The notes under the pieces were generated by a model. The model was given only the letters and a program-made list of their open reading frames with translations, ran no database searches and was not told the origin of the DNA. From positions 2,604,001 through 2,668,000 of the forward strand of contig LR134390.1 in assembly GCA_900637705.1 (NCBI GenBank): 64,000 nucleotides of DNA, written 5' to 3'. Of the stretch, positions 47,696 to 58,039 are shown piece by piece; position 1 is the stretch's first letter; each line of letters opens with the position of its first letter. The translations under genes and the position numbers were made by a program. This DNA comes from Fusobacterium varium. GTDB lineage: Bacteria > Fusobacteriota > Fusobacteriia > Fusobacteriales > Fusobacteriaceae.

Positions 47696-49110
47696 TTAAT
47701 CTTCCCAGCATTCAGCATTTTTTAATTCTGGAACAGATGAAGCTTTAAACTGTGGATTTAATCCTTTTTTCTTTTGAGCAATATAATCTTTAAGAGCTGC
47801 AATTGCCACTTTATAAAGTACTGCAATCACTACCAAGTTCATTATTGCCATAAATCCCATAAATAAATCAGCCATATCCCAAACTATCTGGACTTTGGCA
47901 AGACAACCAAACATTACCATAAATACAACAAAACATCTATAAAGATTTAACCATATCTTATTCCCATTTAAAAACTCTATATTTGTTTCTCCATAATAAT
48001 AGTTTCCTATTATTGATGAAAAAGCAAAAAGGAATATACATACAGCAATGAATATACTTCCCCAAGAACCAACCTGTGAAACAAGAGCTTCCTGAGTCAA
48101 TTGTATTCCATTAGACTCTCCTTGTAAATCTACTCCAGACATTAATATAATAAAAGCAGTTGCAGAACATATCAATATAGTATCTGTAAATACTCCTAAA
48201 GTTTGGATAAGTCCCTGTTTAACTGGGTGAGTAACATTTGCTGTTGCAGCAGCATTGGGAGCACTACCCATTCCTGCTTCATTTGAAAATAGTCCTCTTT
48301 TTATTCCTTGCATGATAACAACTCCAAGTCCTCCACCTACTGCTTGTTTAAATCCAAGAGCATTAGAAATAATAGATTCAACAACTGATGGAATCATTGT
48401 AAAGTTTTTTATCAAAACAAACAATGCTACAAGAACATAAGCAACTGCCATTACAGGAACTATATATTCCACTGCATGAGCTATTCTTTTTACTCCTCCA
48501 AAGATGATAATAGCAGTAGCAGTAGATATTGCTATTCCTAGATACATTCTATTAATGTTAAAAGCTTTTTCAAATGCAAATGATACAGTATTAGCCTGTA
48601 CTGAATTGAATATAAGTCCAAAAGTTATAGAAATAAGAATAGAAAATACAATTCCCATCCATCTTTTCCTAAAGCTTTTTCCATATAGTACGCTGGTCCA
48701 CCTCTAAAATGATCTCCTTCTTTTACTTTGTATACCTGTGCCAGTGTACTTTCTACAAAGCTTGAACTTGACCCTATAAGTGCCATTACCCACATCCAAA
48801 ATATAGCACCTGGTCCACCTATAACAATGGCTATAGCAACTCCTGCCATATTTCCAGTTCCAACTCTGGAAGCTGTTGAAATACAAAATGCTTGAAATGA
48901 AGATATTCCACTTGACCCGTGCTTCTCATTAGAACTTTCATTTTTCATAGCTCCTTCACCAAGAAGTCTAAACATCTCCCCCAATAGTTTAAATTGAACA
49001 AACCCTGTCTTAAAACTAAAATATACTCCTAATCCTACAAGAAGTATTATCAGTATATATGACCATATAAAGTTGTTCAGCCAGTTAAAAGCATCATACA
49101 AAAAAACCAT
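47696..49110 (-). pseudogene. Sodium:alanine/glycine/glutamine symporter (AGCS family), frameshifted
   Basis: Inner-membrane Na+-coupled amino-acid importer. The first 150 or so residues hold the AGCS signature ASRVGTGNMAGVAIAI (about 84-99) and FRGGPAYYMEKAL (about 135-147); the second frame contains KRGLFSNEAGMGSAPNAAATA. The break is at an A4 run of the coding strand (48664-48667): reading GKDGWELYFLFLFL-stop instead of GKRWMGIVFSILISITFG. One added A yields 471 residues, normal for the family. It lies next to and downstream of glutaminase on the same strand, hinting at glutamine uptake. Confidence 0.88.
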
Positions 49111-50435: not shown

Positions 50436-53257
50436 TTAAACCTGTAGATAATCAAAAAGATCCTCAGGAACCTCATTTTTTAATTTAAGTTCATATTCTA
50501 CACGAGGAATTCCTTTTTCAGTAAAACATTCCTTTGCTTTTAAAACTTTCTCAGCCTGTCCTAAATAATAGAAGCTTTCTCCTGAACTTTTTTTTACAAA
50601 TATTTCTAAAGTATAATAATTTTCAGCTATTTTTCCTTCTGCTGTTAATCTATTATTTCTACTTAAACATCTATTATTTTTAGAAAACCATGGAAATCTC
50701 TGCTGATCTAAAAATTTATTGTCAAAAATACTTGAATCTTCCATTGTTACAAACATTATAACTTTCTTTTCTTCTTCAAAAACAGTATATCCACTTACTT
50801 GGTATCCATTATTAAAATCCAGATTCAACTGCCAGAATCCCTCTTGTTTTGTATACTGCTTATATTTTTGAATTGATTCTTTTCCAGATTGTTTATAATT
50901 TTTTTCAACATACCCTAAATTATATTTAATCAAGTCTTCTACTAATTCTCTAAAATACTTATTATTCTCATATCCATTTTTAAAATCTTTACTTACTTTA
51001 TATTCTCCATTAACTTTCTCTAAAATAGGTTCAAATTCTTTCATAGTAGAAAGGCTTGTAAATATTTCCTTAGAAAGATGTTTTACTGCATTTTCTATAT
51101 TTTCTTTTTGTTGCTTTATCTTATATTTTTTCTCTAAAATATCTTCTACTTCTTTCAAAGAAATTTTTGCACTTTTAATACTTTCCTGTAATATTACCAT
51201 TTCGTGAATTCTTTTTGCTGGAGTAAAAAAGCTTGACAAGAAAGTTAAAAAATTCTTTTCTATTTCTGATAAAATTCCAAATTCTGTATTAGGTCTTAAG
51301 GCTTTTAAAACACTGTCATAATCTTTTCTAAATTTTAAAATTACACTTGGTTCTATCATATTTCTTGTAAAAAAATCATTTAACATTGGAGTTCTTCCAA
51401 GCTGTTTTTCTAGAAGATTAAAATCATGCTCTATATTTTTCTTAGTTGAAAAATTGGTTTTATTTATATTTTCAAATATTCTTTCTTTTACTATTTCTTC
51501 AAAAGAAATTGAACTTTCTCCTGGAATCATATTTGTTCCATTCAAAATAAATTTTTTCATAAAATCTTTATCAAAACTATTATTTTGAGAAATTGCAGTT
51601 GGTATCAAAAAGTTTTTCTCATAATTTCCTATAAAATCTAAGACTACAACAAATTCTTTATTTTTATTTTTTCTTAACCCTCTTCCCAATTGTTGAATAT
51701 AGACAATAGAAGATTCAGTAGGTCTTAGAAGAATAACTTGATTCACACAAGGTATATCAATCCCTTCATTAAAAATATCCACAGTTATGATATATTCTAT
51801 CTCTCCATTCTCTAATTTTTCAATAGCATTCTCTCTTGTATTATCTCCATGTTCTCCTGTAAGTGCTATACTTTTTATTCCTCTTTCATTAAATTTTTCA
51901 GCAAGAATATTTGCTTCTTCCACTCTTGATACAAACATTAACCCATGAAGTTTCTCTCCACTGTATCCATAATATCTACTTTTCTCAATTATATGATCTA
52001 TTCTTTGCTCTAAAGTAAGATTTTTTATAGAAGTTTTATTATCAATACACTCTCCATCTACTGTTATATCTGAAACTCCAAAATAGTGAAATGGACATAG
52101 CAGATTTTCTCTAAGAGCATCATAAAGCCTTATTTCATATGCTATATTATGATTAAATAATCTATAGATATCAAAATCATCACTTCTTTCTGGAGTTGCT
52201 GTCATTCCTAATAAAAATCTGGCTTAAAATAACTTATTATACTTTGATAAGTTTTAGCTCCACTATGGTGAACTTCGTCAATTATTATATAGTTAAAGTA
52301 ATTTTTAGAAAATTTTTCCAAATGTTCTTTTTTATTTAAAGTTTGAACCATAGCAAATATATAATCTGCGTCTACAATACTTTCCTCTCCATATATAGCC
52401 ATTTTTTTATTACTTATAATATTTTCAAAAGTATACTTAGCTTTCCTCAATATAGTTTTTCTATGAGCTATAAACAGCATTTTTTCTGGTTTTAGATTTT
52501 TTACATCAAAGGCACTTAAATATGTTTTTCCTGTCCCAGTTGCACTAATTAATAACCCTTTATCTTCACTTTCCCTCAATAATTTTAAATTTTCCAATGC
52601 TTCTTTCTGCATAAAATTAGGTTTTATATCCTTTTTAAATAAAGAATTTTGGTTTTTTTCTTGAATTTTTGAATATTCCTTTGATAGCTTATATACTTTT
52701 TCATAATTTTCTATCATTTCTAAATCCAATTTAGGAAGTCTTTCAAAAATTTCTTCAAAATTATTTAAAATGTCCTTTGTAATTTTTCCATCTTCTAAAG
52801 AATTTATTTTTAAATTCCATTCAAAATTCACTGTTAAAGCTGTCTGAGTTAAATTACTGCTTCCAATTATCAAAGTCCAGAGATTTCCTTTTTTAAAAAA
52901 ATACCCTTTTGCATGAAATTTTTCTTTGGATAATATTTTTAATTCAATATTTTTATAGTTTAGAAGTCTTTTTAATGCTTTTGGTTCAGTAAAATTTAAG
53001 TAATCCCCTGTAAGAATCTTTCCTCTTATATTCCTATTTTCTAACTCTTTCAATTGCTCTAGAATTAAAGATAGCCCTCCCTCTGTTATAAAAGCTACTG
53101 AAATTATAAATTCATCACAATTTTCTAATTCTTTCCTTAAATTTATTATTATTTTTTCTTCTTTATTACAAAGCAATTTATGTTGAAAATTTTGACTTGA
53201 TTCTATATTTAAATTTATTGAACTCGTTTTAAGACTTTCAATTAAACTTTTTTCCAC
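50436..53257 (-). pseudogene. PLD-nuclease/SF2-helicase/DUF3427 protein, frameshifted
   Basis: About 940 residues once joined. N-terminus: a phospholipase-D-type nuclease domain (about 30-180) with the HxK-type site HAKGYFF and GSSNLTQTAL. Then a superfamily 2 helicase: Walker A ATGTGKTYLSAF (about 235), DEVHHSGAKT (motif II, about 327), motif III TATPER in the second frame, and QLGRGLRKNKNKEFVVVLDF (motif VI). The C-terminal third matches DUF3427 (NLDFNNGYQVSGYTVFEEEK). The break is at A5 on the plus strand (52213-52217): one more base gives PDFLLGMTATPE. Such proteins are found singly in many bacteria and are suspected in DNA repair or anti-phage defence; no partner gene is adjacent. Confidence 0.86.
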
Positions 53258-53719: not shown

Positions 53720-53748
53720 TTGAAATTATTAAAAAATAGAAGTATACT
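53720..53748 (+). promoter_or_regulatory. Promoter of the P1B-ATPase operon
   Basis: TTGAAA (53720-53725), 17-base spacer, TATACT (53743-53748), 70 bases before the first start codon. The leader contains a short TTATT/AATAA symmetry (about 53769-53782) that might be an operator. Confidence 0.7.
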
Positions 53749-53817
53749 TTAGAAAAAGTTTTATTATCAAATAATCTTATATTATTATATTTTGAAAATA
53801 GTTATGGAGGTAATTGA

Positions 53818-54312
53818 GTGAAAAATAGTACACTACCTAGCTTTTATGGAATATTAGAAATACAGCATTACATAAAAGGAAGAATAAGAGTAAAAATTGA
53901 ATCTTTAAAAAATGATGATAAAAAAGCTGATGAATTAAAAATGAATCTATTAAAACTCAATGGAATAAAGGAAGTTGCTATTAATTCTCTACTGGGAACT
54001 ATTTTAGTAAAATTTGATGAAACTATAATAGAGCCTGTTATACTTATAGGAGTTTTACTCAATTTTTTAGGTCTTGAAGAAGAAGCTTTTGAAAAGAAAA
54101 ATGGAAGAATGTCTTTTGTATTAAAAGATATTCTTGAAGCTATGGATATGACCTTATATAACAAAACAAAAGGAATATTAGACATTAAAACAACAATAGC
54201 CTTATTTTTTCTAATATATGGAGTAAAAAAAATAAAACAGAATCCTATAATGCCAAATGGTGTAAATATGCTATGGTGGGCATATAACATAATGACAAAA
54301 GGAGGAAAATAA
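53818..54312 (+). CDS. HMA-like protein, first gene of the P1B-ATPase operon
   Basis: 164 residues. N-terminus HYIKGRIRVKIESL (about 17-30) begins a ferredoxin-fold HMA-like domain (to about 95) that lacks the CxxC metal motif. The C-terminal part has one membrane segment (TIALFFLIYGVKKI, about 128-141) and ends PNGVNMLWWAYNIMTKGGK. Start is GTG at 53818 after GGAGG. It overlaps the next gene by one base (TAATG). The conserved HxxxGRxRhK is shared with the next genes. Possible membrane partner of the ATPase; by analogy to ferrosome (fez) operons a structural or targeting role is conceivable. Confidence 0.85.
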   Translation: MKNSTLPSFYGILEIQHYIKGRIRVKIESLKNDDKKADELKMNLLKLNGIKEVAINSLLGTILVKFDETIIEPVILIGVLLNFLGLEEEAFEKKNGRMSFVLKDILEAMDMTLYNKTKGILDIKTTIALFFLIYGVKKIKQNPIMPNGVNMLWWAYNIMTKGGK

Positions 54313-54695
54313 TGAATACTCTATTAAAAACAGCATTTTTTTACTTTAATAAAATAAAGGTAATTCATAGTATTCCTGGAAGAATAAGATTAGCTGTTCC
54401 TGGGTTGAATAATGTTCCAGAAAATATGAGAAAATATGAGCATTATACTACTTCTCTTATAAAAATTGAAAAAGGAATAAAAGATGTTTCATATTCTTAT
54501 GTAACTGGAAAAGTCCTTTTGATTTATGATACAAATGAAACAAATGAAAAGAAAATATTAGACTGGATAAATTTTATATGGAAAAAAGTTATTGATAACG
54601 AGGATATTTATAATAAGATGCAACCTGAAGAAATAGAAAAAAATCTTGATAAACTTTATGAAATGCTTTGTAAAGAGCTGAAAAAAGGGAGATAA
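54312..54695 (+). CDS. HMA-like protein, second gene of the P1B-ATPase operon
   Basis: 127 residues; HSIPGRIRLAVPGL (about 18-31) opens an HMA-like domain with VTGKVLLIYD as its later strand. No CxxC, no membrane segment beyond a weak N-terminal one. Translationally coupled to the preceding gene by the TAATG overlap and followed after five bases by the ATPase gene. Function not known; paralogous in its first 90 residues to the flanking proteins. Confidence 0.85.
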   Translation: MNTLLKTAFFYFNKIKVIHSIPGRIRLAVPGLNNVPENMRKYEHYTTSLIKIEKGIKDVSYSYVTGKVLLIYDTNETNEKKILDWINFIWKKVIDNEDIYNKMQPEEIEKNLDKLYEMLCKELKKGR

Positions 54696-54700
54696 TTCAA

Positions 54701-56895
54701 ATGGAAAGAACTAGTAATGGATATCTCTTATCTTGTGAAGTTGTCCATAAAATAAGAGGAAGAATACGTATAAAATCAAGAGCATTAAAATATCTTGGCA
54801 ATATGAAGCAAAATATAGAAAAACAATTAGAAGAAGTCAGATATATCAATAGTGTAAAAATAAGCAATATTACAGGTACCATAGTAATATATTTTACTGA
54901 TATCACTGTTACTGAAGAAAATCTAATAGCTCTTCTACAAAATACACTAAATGTATATCTCGTTGAAATATACAAAAATGAAAAAATAGAAAACAATAAA
55001 CAAATAGTAATAGAAAGGAAGTTGCAGGAGGAATCTCCAGAAGAAATAATCAAAAAATTACAGCAGCTGGAGGATTATTAGCATATAATATATTCAAAAA
55101 AGTTCCTGCTGAACCAATGACAGGGTTAAAAAAATTTTTTAATTTTAATACATTGTCTATAATTTCATTAGCAGCTCCTGTTATAAAAAATGGAATTGGC
55201 TCTCTTATAAGAAATAAAAGACCCAATGCTGATACTTTAAGTTCAAGTGCTATTATAAGTAGCTTGCTCTTAGGAAAAGAAAAAACAGCTTTGACAATAA
55301 TGATATTAGAAGAGTTTGCTGAACTTCTTACAGTATATACAATGAAAAAAACAAGAGGAGCTATCAAAGATATGCTCAGTGTAGGAGAAAATTTTGTCTG
55401 GAAACAGATAGACACAAATAATATAAAGAAAGTTTCTATTGATGAAATTCAAAAGGGAGATAAAATTGTAGTTCAAACTGGTGAAAAGATCAGTGTAGAT
55501 GGAGTTATAATAAAAGGAGAAGCTTTTATTGATCAATCATCTATTACTGGAGAATATATGCCTGTAACTAAAAAGGCTGGAGAAAGTGTTTTTGCTGGAA
55601 CTATAATAAAAAATGGAAATATAACTATTGAAGCTGAAAAAGTAGGAGATGAGAGAACTGTATCCAGAATTATCAAACTTGTAGAAGATGCTAATTTTAA
55701 TAAAGCTCAAATACAAAACTATGCAGATACATTCTCAGCTCAACTTATTCCTTTAAACTTTCTTTTAGCTGGAATAGTATATGTTGCTACAAAAAATATA
55801 CAGAAAGCCATGAGTATGCTTGTTATAGATTATTCATGTGGTATCAGGCTTTCTACTGCAGCTGCCTTTTCAGCTGCCATCAACACAGCTGCTAAAAATG
55901 GTATCCTCATAAAAGGAAGTAACTATATTGAAGAATTATCAAAAGCCGATACAATAATATTTGATAAAACTGGTACTATCACTGAAGGAAAACCAAGTGT
56001 ACAAACAATTAAAGTGTTAGATAAATCAATCAAAGAAAATACTATGCTTGCTTATGCTGCTGCTGCTGAAGAAACATCAAGTCACCCATTGGCTGTAGCT
56101 ATACTTAACGAAACTAAAGACAGAGGTATTGAAATACCATTGCATGAAGAAAATAAAATAGTTCTGGCAAGAGGTATTGAAACTGTAGTAGATGGTAAAG
56201 TTATAAGAGTAGGAAGTAAAAAATTTATGGAAGAAAATGGTATTCCTACTGAAAAAAATCATGAAGAAGTAAAAGTTATTCTTGGAAGGGGAGAGATTCT
56301 CATCTATATATCAAGAGATAATAAATTGATAGGTTTATTAGGAGTAACTGATCCACCTAGAGAAAATATTAAAAAAACTATTAATAGACTTAGAGGGCAA
56401 GGAATAGATGAAATAATTCTTCTTACAGGAGATTTGGAGCAACAAGCACACACCATTGCTTCAAGAATGGCAATAGATAGTTATGAATCTGAACTTCTAC
56501 CTGAAGATAAGGCAAAAAATATACTTACTCTTCAATCAAGAGGTGGAAAAGTAATAATGATAGGAGATGGAATAAATGATGCTCCTGCACTATCTTATGC
56601 TAATATTGGAATAGCTTTGGGAAGCACAAGAACAGATGTTGCCATGGAAGCTGCTGATGTTACTATAACTAAAGATGATCCTTTATTAGTTCCAGAAGTA
56701 ATTGGATTATCTAAAAAAACTATAAGCACAATAAAAGAAAATTTTGCAATGGCAATAGGAGTAAACTCTTTTGCCTTAGTACTAGGGGCTACTGGGATAC
56801 TTCCAGCTATATATAGTTCCGTTATTCATAATTTAAGTACTATACTTGTAGTAGGAAATTCTTTAAAATTATTAAAATATAAATTGAAAAATTAA
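54701..56895 (+). pseudogene. P1B-type heavy-metal ATPase with HMA-like N-domain, frameshifted
   Basis: Membrane metal pump. The N-terminal part (HKIRGRIRIKSRAL, about 15-29) is an HMA-like domain without CxxC. After the break come membrane helices, the actuator motif SSITGEYMPVTK (about 282), the transmembrane ion-site segment DYSCGIRLST (about 376) in place of CPC, the phosphorylation motif FDKTGTITEGKP (about 421), and GDGINDAPAL (about 621). The frame breaks at A6 (55052-55057); adding one A turns KKLQQLEDY-stop into KKITAAGGLLAYNIFKKVPAEP and gives 731 residues. The SCG site resembles the SCA/SCG-type group sometimes called P1B-6, which includes FezB of ferrosomes. Substrate is inferred to be iron; it could be another transition metal. 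Confidence 0.85.
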
Positions 56896-56906
56896 GGAGA
56901 TAATTA

Positions 56907-57665
56907 ATGAAAAAACTTACACTGACAATTCTTCATAGATTGCCTAATAGAGTAAGATTAAAACTTTCAGTTCCTATTAAAAACTTTGATTCATTTGAAA
57001 AAAATATAACTCATGATATTAAAGGAAGCATTGAAATAAAGTATACTCCTGTGACTAAAACAGTAATAGCAAAATTTGATCCTGAAAACATATATCTTCA
57101 AGAGGTAATATATAAAATATTAACAGCATTTTCTATAGAAAATGGAATGATTCCTGTAAAACTTTTAGAGGGAACTGAACAAAAAGCTATAGAAAGATTT
57201 TCTGTTTATTCAGGAGCTACTATTATTATGTCAGGACTGCACATGATAATGAATAAAAATGGAGTTGAACTACAAAATATGATGAACTGGTTTTCATTAG
57301 GAATGACTTCAGCTGCCATATTTGAACATGCTTGTACAGAAATAAACAAAAAAGGAGTATTTGATTTAGAAATACTTCCAGCAATGTATCTTGTAAAATC
57401 ATTCTTAAATACACCTAAATTATCTTTAGTTGCAATGATATGGCTGACAACATTTGGAAGACATCTTATTACTACATCAAATTCAGCCAAAGAAATCAAA
57501 ATATTTAGAATAAAAAATCAAAAAGACAATAAATATCATTATATAGCAAATATTTCTGATGATCATAGTATTGAAAATATAGGAGATTTATTGTATCATA
57601 TTTTCTTTAGAAAAGGCAGAGATTTGGTAAAACCAAGTGAAAAATATATAACTATAAACAAATAA
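56907..57665 (+). CDS. HMA-like membrane protein, fourth gene of the P1B-ATPase operon
   Basis: 252 residues. An HMA-like domain opens with HRLPNRVRLKLSVP (about 10-23), again with the H...R-x-R-L-K pattern and no CxxC. Residues about 95-200 hold two to four hydrophobic segments (FSVYSGATIIMSGLHMIM, WFSLGMTSAAIF, LSLVAMIWLTTFG) like the membrane part of P1B ATPases, so it may be a catalytically dead ATPase relative or a membrane scaffold. Starts 11 bases after the ATPase stop. Confidence 0.82.
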   Translation: MKKLTLTILHRLPNRVRLKLSVPIKNFDSFEKNITHDIKGSIEIKYTPVTKTVIAKFDPENIYLQEVIYKILTAFSIENGMIPVKLLEGTEQKAIERFSVYSGATIIMSGLHMIMNKNGVELQNMMNWFSLGMTSAAIFEHACTEINKKGVFDLEILPAMYLVKSFLNTPKLSLVAMIWLTTFGRHLITTSNSAKEIKIFRIKNQKDNKYHYIANISDDHSIENIGDLLYHIFFRKGRDLVKPSEKYITINK

Positions 57666-57683
57666 ATCAATAGGAGGTAAAAA

Positions 57684-57980
57684 ATGTTCGGATTTGGACA
57701 AGGAAATGGCGGAATAACTAAAGCTCATTTAGTAGGTGCAGCAGTAGGTGTAGGTGTAACAGTAGCTGGATACTATCTATACAAAAAGAATAAATCAAAA
57801 GTAGATGGATTTTTAAAATCACAAGGAATCAATATAAAAAGCTGTGATTCAACAAATTATGAAGATATGTCAGTAGAAACTTTAACTGAAGTTAAAGAAC
57901 ACATAGAAGATATATTGGCAGAAAAAGAATTAAATAATGTAAATGTTGAACAATGTGATATTTCTTGTGAAGCTAAATAA
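57684..57980 (+). CDS. Small membrane protein, last gene of the P1B-ATPase operon
   Basis: 98 residues: a Gly-rich hydrophobic segment (AHLVGAAVGVGVTVAGYYLY, about 14-33), then a charged helical tail with three cysteines (KSCDST near 53, EQCDISCEAK at the end). Resembles small glycine-rich membrane proteins found beside P1B ATPases (possibly of the DUF6110 type; not certain). The terminal Cys-x3-Cys could bind metal. GGAGG before the ATG; a terminator follows. Confidence 0.8.
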   Translation: MFGFGQGNGGITKAHLVGAAVGVGVTVAGYYLYKKNKSKVDGFLKSQGINIKSCDSTNYEDMSVETLTEVKEHIEDILAEKELNNVNVEQCDISCEAK

Positions 57981-58005
57981 GTTTCTGCATTTATAAAAAT
58001 GAACT

Positions 58006-58039
58006 AATGTCTGTTAAGTTAAATAACTTAGCAGACATT
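58006..58039 (+). terminator. Terminator of the P1B-ATPase operon
   Basis: Sixteen-base arms (58006-58021 and 58024-58039) with one mismatch, two-base loop, then TTTTCTTTT. Confidence 0.88.

What the first reader, a model, noticed from the sequence alone, without database searches (positions are those of the whole stretch)
53720..58039. Ferrosome-like five-gene operon in a fusobacterium
One promoter and one terminator enclose four HMA-like proteins (one of them the N-domain of a P1B ATPase) and a small Gly-rich membrane protein. The ATPase has the SCG ion-site motif rather than CPC, the type I associate with P1B-6 ATPases such as FezB. Iron-storing lipid-bounded ferrosomes made by fez operons are known in Desulfovibrio magneticus, Shewanella, Rhodopseudomonas and C. 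difficile; gene make-up here (P1B-6-like pump plus small membrane proteins of unknown function) is similar. Seen: genes, motifs, operon layout. Inferred: iron storage.
Basis: partly seen in the sequence, partly recalled or inferred. Interest (0 to 1): 0.9.

Follow-up and report, generated by a model that had tools for sequence, protein, structure and literature searches.

The report
Ferrosome-pump relative operon in fusobacteria
A five-gene operon kept across fusobacteria and some Firmicutes encodes a metal pump that is probably the sister group of the ferrosome iron pump FezB; it probably moves ferrous iron, but whether it builds iron-storing organelles is untested, and its pump gene reads as broken in this one assembly.

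Summary
The operon is real. Five genes lie in the order HMA2, HMA2, P1B ATPase, HMA2-like, small one-helix membrane protein. A close copy occurs in 27 of 61 fusobacterial genomes searched, and the same order occurs on Priestia plasmid pBM400 and in two Bacillota loci. The ATPase carries IDYSCG in place of CPC, plus an HN motif, which are P1B-6 features. In a maximum-likelihood tree its clade is sister to, not inside, the FezB clade (99/98; 91/87 with TM6 masked). Grouping it with CtpC-type pumps is rejected with TM6 included (AU p=0.018) but not with TM6 masked (p=0.264). In 4 of 11 Bacillota genomes the cluster sits next to feoAB, which points to Fe(II). No DUF6110 FezA, no DUF4405 FezC and no recognisable Fur box were found; the 98-aa protein resembles FezA only weakly. 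I judge it an iron-handling P1B-6 operon that works like, but is not shown to be, a ferrosome cluster. The F. nucleatum RNA-binding "PtaT" (PMC12159189) is very probably this same ATPase. The window's ATPase frame break is probably an assembly error: 3 of 7 comparable genes are frame-broken here.

The parts
53720..53748 (+). promoter-like TTGAAA-17-TATACT
   Evidence: same hexamers in L008; no excess over shuffles
53818..54312 (+). gene 1: HMA2-domain protein, 164 aa, no Cys, GTG start
   Evidence: (PF19991 5.9e-58)
54312..54695 (+). gene 2: HMA2-domain protein, 127 aa
   Evidence: (PF19991 2e-10)
54701..55081 (+). gene 3a: N-terminal HMA2 domain of the P1B-6-type ATPase (HKIRGRIRIK)
   Evidence: PF19991 6e-12; fused to the ATPase in relatives
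55117..56895 (+). gene 3b: P1B ATPase body, IDYSCG in place of CPC, DKTGT, IHN near the C-end; frame open from about 55000
56907..57665 (+). gene 4: HMA2-like protein, 252 aa
   Evidence: profile match E=4.7e-8
57684..57980 (+). gene 5: small protein, 98 aa, Gly-rich helix then acidic KEHIEDILAE stretch; FezA/PacL-like layout
58006..58039 (+). intrinsic terminator-like hairpin, 15 pairs, T tail

Best explanation
The operon encodes an Fe(II)-handling P1B-6 pump, probably the sister group of the ferrosome pump FezB, together with three HMA2 proteins without CxxC and a one-helix FezA/PacL-like scaffold. Shown: gene content, order, motifs, wide conservation, tree position and feoAB linkage in Bacillota. 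Inferred: the scaffold and HMA2 proteins gather the pump into membrane patches or vesicles; the HMA2 domains lack CxxC, so they act as docking or regulatory modules rather than classical metal chaperones; the pump uses its Asp-x-Ser-Cys and His-Asn site to move Fe(II) into a lipid-bounded store, as FezB is thought to do.
For: Sister position to FezB 99/98, TM6-masked 91/87; AU rejects grouping with CtpC-type pumps when TM6 is included (p=0.018). Shared [IV]D[YF]SC[AG] and invariant HN; the HN motif is named as a P1B6 feature in PMC9374683. feoAB adjoins the cluster in G265, G310, G133 and G358, 4 of 11 genomes, three of them independent, against well under 0.1 expected from 0-4 feoB matches per genome. 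An iron-dependent-repressor-family regulator adjoins the operon in L155. The five-gene order is kept in L084, L095 and L041. The C. difficile FezB-type locus has the related motif and N-domain.
Against: No DUF6110 in 98 Fusobacteriota; gene 5 vs FezA only prob 11.8%, E=0.0025 over 25 columns. No Fur box. With TM6 masked, a clade with CtpC-like pumps is not rejected (p=0.264). Ferritin-family genes are present in 59 of 61 relatives, so no sign of the operon replacing them. feoAB is not beside the operon in 20 fusobacterial genomes.
Confidence: 0.5

Rival explanations
1. A plasma-membrane efflux platform: the pump exports Fe(II), or Mn/Zn, out of the cell and the small protein clusters it, as PacL1 does for the zinc pump CtpC; no storage organelle.
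For: CtpC-type HMA2 ATPases are the next clade out and are not excluded as sister with TM6 masked. DUF1490 (PacL) and DUF6110 are described as related, and DUF6110 as paired with P1B6 pumps (PMC9374683). L155 has a ZnuA-type ABC system beside the operon.
Against: CPC is replaced by DYSCG, matching the FezB pattern; no PacL-type DLHDHDH metal-binding tail in gene 5; feoAB linkage points to iron.
Confidence: 0.33
2. The ATPase's main role is binding and uptake of host tsRNA (PtaT), not metal transport.
For: PtaT residues E456, S459, H461, K511 fall exactly on the F. vincentii copy; the other two P1B pumps there have this His at 354 or 499. The authors report reduced tsRNA uptake in the mutant (PMC12159189).
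Against: Catalytic P-type motifs are kept across phyla, with HMA2 partners and feoAB neighbours; the authors themselves leave open whether it is an RNA transporter.
Confidence: 0.04
3. An ordinary Cu or Zn/Cd exporter operon.
For: Generic heavy-metal ATPase models match.
Against: The tree separates it from CopA and ZntA/CadA groups; no CPC in the ATPase and no CxxC anywhere in the operon.
Confidence: 0.06

Closest known systems
Ferrosome fezAB of Clostridioides difficile (L063/L078)
   Same: P1B-6 ATPase with N-terminal HMA2 GRIR domain, SC[A/G] site, HN motif; small one-helix partner
   Different: Partner is DUF6110, order FezA-FezB, no HMA2 partners; ATPases about 33% identical and in sister clades. 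Identity of L063 as FezB is by elimination, not by name
Six-gene FezB-type cluster of Azospirillum brasilense (L043), like the six-gene Rhodopseudomonas fez set (RPA2333-2338, PMC12016538)
   Same: SCA ATPase, HMA2 proteins and a small helix protein; beside an iron ABC transporter
   Different: Gene order and sequences differ; ferrosomes not known to have been tested in Azospirillum; the Rhodopseudomonas sequences were not compared
CtpC-PacL1 zinc efflux platform
   Same: HMA2-type N-domain P1B ATPase with HN motif and one-helix scaffold
   Different: CPC site, Zn export, DUF1490 partner with metal-binding tail
PtaT of Fusobacterium nucleatum (UniProt D5RD38)
   Same: Very probably the orthologous ATPase
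   Different: Published as an RNA-binding protein; metal role not studied there

Membership tests
Ferrosome (fez) gene cluster | P1B-6 ATPase (no CPC, HN motif) | tested here: met
   P1B6 features per PMC9374683
Ferrosome (fez) gene cluster | ATPase inside the FezB clade | tested here: not met
   sister clade, 99/98, 91/87 masked
Ferrosome (fez) gene cluster | FezA of DUF6110 type | tested here: not met
   no PF19605 in the operon or in 98 Fusobacteriota; weak profile match only
Ferrosome (fez) gene cluster | FezC DUF4405-like cytochrome (D. magneticus) | tested here: not met
   no DUF4405 hit in the operon; may not be a feature of every fez cluster (none seen next to the C. difficile pair)
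Ferrosome (fez) gene cluster | Fur-repressed | tested here: inconclusive
   no consensus Fur box upstream; fusobacterial operator unknown
Ferrosome (fez) gene cluster | iron-rich lipid-bounded granules | not testable with these tools
   needs electron microscopy
CtpC-PacL efflux platform | CPC-bearing ATPase with DUF1490 partner | tested here: not met
   SCG site; no PF07371 in the operon
PtaT | E456, S459, H461, K511 at those positions in the F. nucleatum-group protein | tested here: met
   on F. vincentii SB055; the ATCC 23726 sequence itself was not at hand

The most novel reading that the evidence does not exclude
A second class of iron-compartment operon, with an SCG pump and its own HMA2/scaffold set independent of DUF6110 FezA, shared by fusobacteria and Bacillota; in F. 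nucleatum its pump is PtaT, so host tsRNAs would act on the bacterium through its iron handling.
Probability: 0.3. Interest if true: 0.78.

Novelty: new variant of a known kind. Interest (0 to 1): 0.58.

Why it matters
Fusobacteria are oral and gut organisms linked to periodontitis and colorectal cancer. If the operon stores iron, ferrosome-like compartments would extend to this phylum with a new pump subclass, and a published RNA-binding phenotype (PtaT) would gain an iron explanation that an existing deletion mutant can test at once.

Tried and rejected
Pfam and NCBIfam on gene 5: nothing above cut-off. PDB sequence search: only Cu/Zn/Cd/K pumps and no FezB structure; gene 1 gave a single weak HMA hit. 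AlphaFold without an alignment for genes 1 and 4: mean pLDDT 47.6 and 43.6, unusable, so no fold search was run. Fur-box scans: chance level. Ferritin anticorrelation: none. Programmed frameshift in the ATPase: considered, but intact relatives and other broken genes nearby argue for assembly error. The two ferrosome Nature papers (Grant 2022, Pi 2023) were not in the library, so whether fusobacteria were already listed among fez carriers could not be checked.

Full report
Observation. The window (2604001-2668000 of a 3.30 Mb single-contig genome) carries five collinear genes at 53818-57980 between a promoter-like site and a terminator. Three separate proteins and the ATPase N-domain belong to or resemble HMA_2. 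None has CxxC; their shared feature is H-x3-[GN]R-x-R. The ATPase reads IDYSCG where Cu and Zn pumps read CPC. The genome's other two P1B pumps among the matches read (L001, L003) are CPC types.

Conservation. Of 61 genomes searched (the window's own and 60 relatives), 27 carry a close copy of the ATPase (60% identity or more). The other four genes flank it in the same order in the copies read (in two, gene 1 is cut by the contig end), across Fusobacterium and related families. The same order HMA2-HMA2-ATPase-HMA2-small protein recurs on Priestia megaterium plasmid pBM400 and in Bacillota L084 and L095.

Frame break. In the window the N-domain (ending 55081) and the ATPase body are in different frames, whereas relatives have one ORF. 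L026 is the only other split copy seen. Compared with the closest genome G001, 3 of 7 comparable genes of the window are frame-broken and 0 of 8 the other way round, so an assembly error is the likelier cause. Intact copies exist; no repair is proposed here.

Relation to FezB. C. difficile genomes were reached through a 16S pattern. Among the P1B pumps found there, the only one with an HMA2 N-domain and without CPC is L063 (VDFSCA), preceded by a DUF6110 protein; it is taken as FezB with FezA by elimination. DUF6110 lies beside that pump type in other Bacillota. That DUF6110 genes are typically paired with P1B6 pumps, and that an HN motif marks P1B6, is stated in PMC9374683. That FezA and FezB are required for C. 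difficile ferrosomes and are repressed by Fur is stated in PMC12574912. FezC as a DUF4405-like cytochrome is in PMC11334425. The tree of 44 ATPases puts the SCG clade (fusobacteria plus Bacillota) as sister to the FezB/SCA clade (Bacillota, Azospirillum, Vibrio), with HMA2-CPC pumps including a CtpC-like one outside. Masking TM6 lowers support to 91/87. The AU test rejects SCG with CtpC-type pumps when TM6 is kept (p=0.018) but not when masked (p=0.264). The sister relation is therefore likely, not certain.

Iron context. In Bacillota genomes G265, G310, G133 and G358 the cluster adjoins feoA and feoB. The 11 genomes looked at hold 0-4 feoB matches each, so chance adjacency within 5 kb is of the order of half a percent per genome (my estimate from these counts and genome sizes); G133 and G358 are near relatives, leaving three independent cases. 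In L155 (G056, same order) the operon adjoins an iron-dependent-repressor-family regulator and a ZnuA-type ABC system. In four Fusobacterium genomes a flavodoxin lies just upstream, in three of them with a DUF2023 gene. No feo gene lies within the stretches read around 20 fusobacterial copies.

Partners. Gene 1 matches an HMA2 protein of the Azospirillum FezB-type cluster (30% over 80 residues), which lies beside an iron ABC transporter. Gene 5 has the layout of FezA and PacL (Gly-rich helix, then an acidic stretch ending in EDILAE), but the profile match to FezA is weak.

PtaT. PMC12159189 describes an F. nucleatum P-type ATPase that binds host tsRNA, with residues E456, S459, H461 and K511. 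All four fall on the SCG ATPase of F. vincentii SB055. The two other P1B pumps of that genome place the equivalent His elsewhere. PtaT is thus very probably this pump, although the ATCC 23726 sequence was not compared directly.

Verdict. It works most likely like a FezB system, moving Fe(II) into a membrane-bound store, or, as the main rival, out of the cell from a clustered platform. It is not filed as a fez cluster because clade membership and FezA were tested and not met.

Noticed in passing
50436-53257 (-) and about 47699-49110 (-): Two more genes (a 940-aa helicase/DUF3427 protein and a 471-aa protein in relative G001) are frame-broken in the window, suggesting indel errors in this assembly.
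   Followed up: partly
L040:4995-7199: The F. vincentii ATPase matches all four PtaT residues of a published tsRNA-binding protein.
   Followed up: yes
L149:7176-7995 and the same place in L148, L150, L151: A flavodoxin gene (with a DUF2023 gene in L149-L151) directly upstream of the operon in four Fusobacterium genomes; flavodoxin is often iron-responsive.
   Followed up: partly
L155:4588-7972: DtxR-type regulator with a FeoA domain and a ZnuA-type ABC transporter directly downstream of the operon.
   Followed up: partly
L026 (G039): A second genome in which the ATPase N-domain and body are separate ORFs, broken slightly upstream of the window's break.
   Followed up: no
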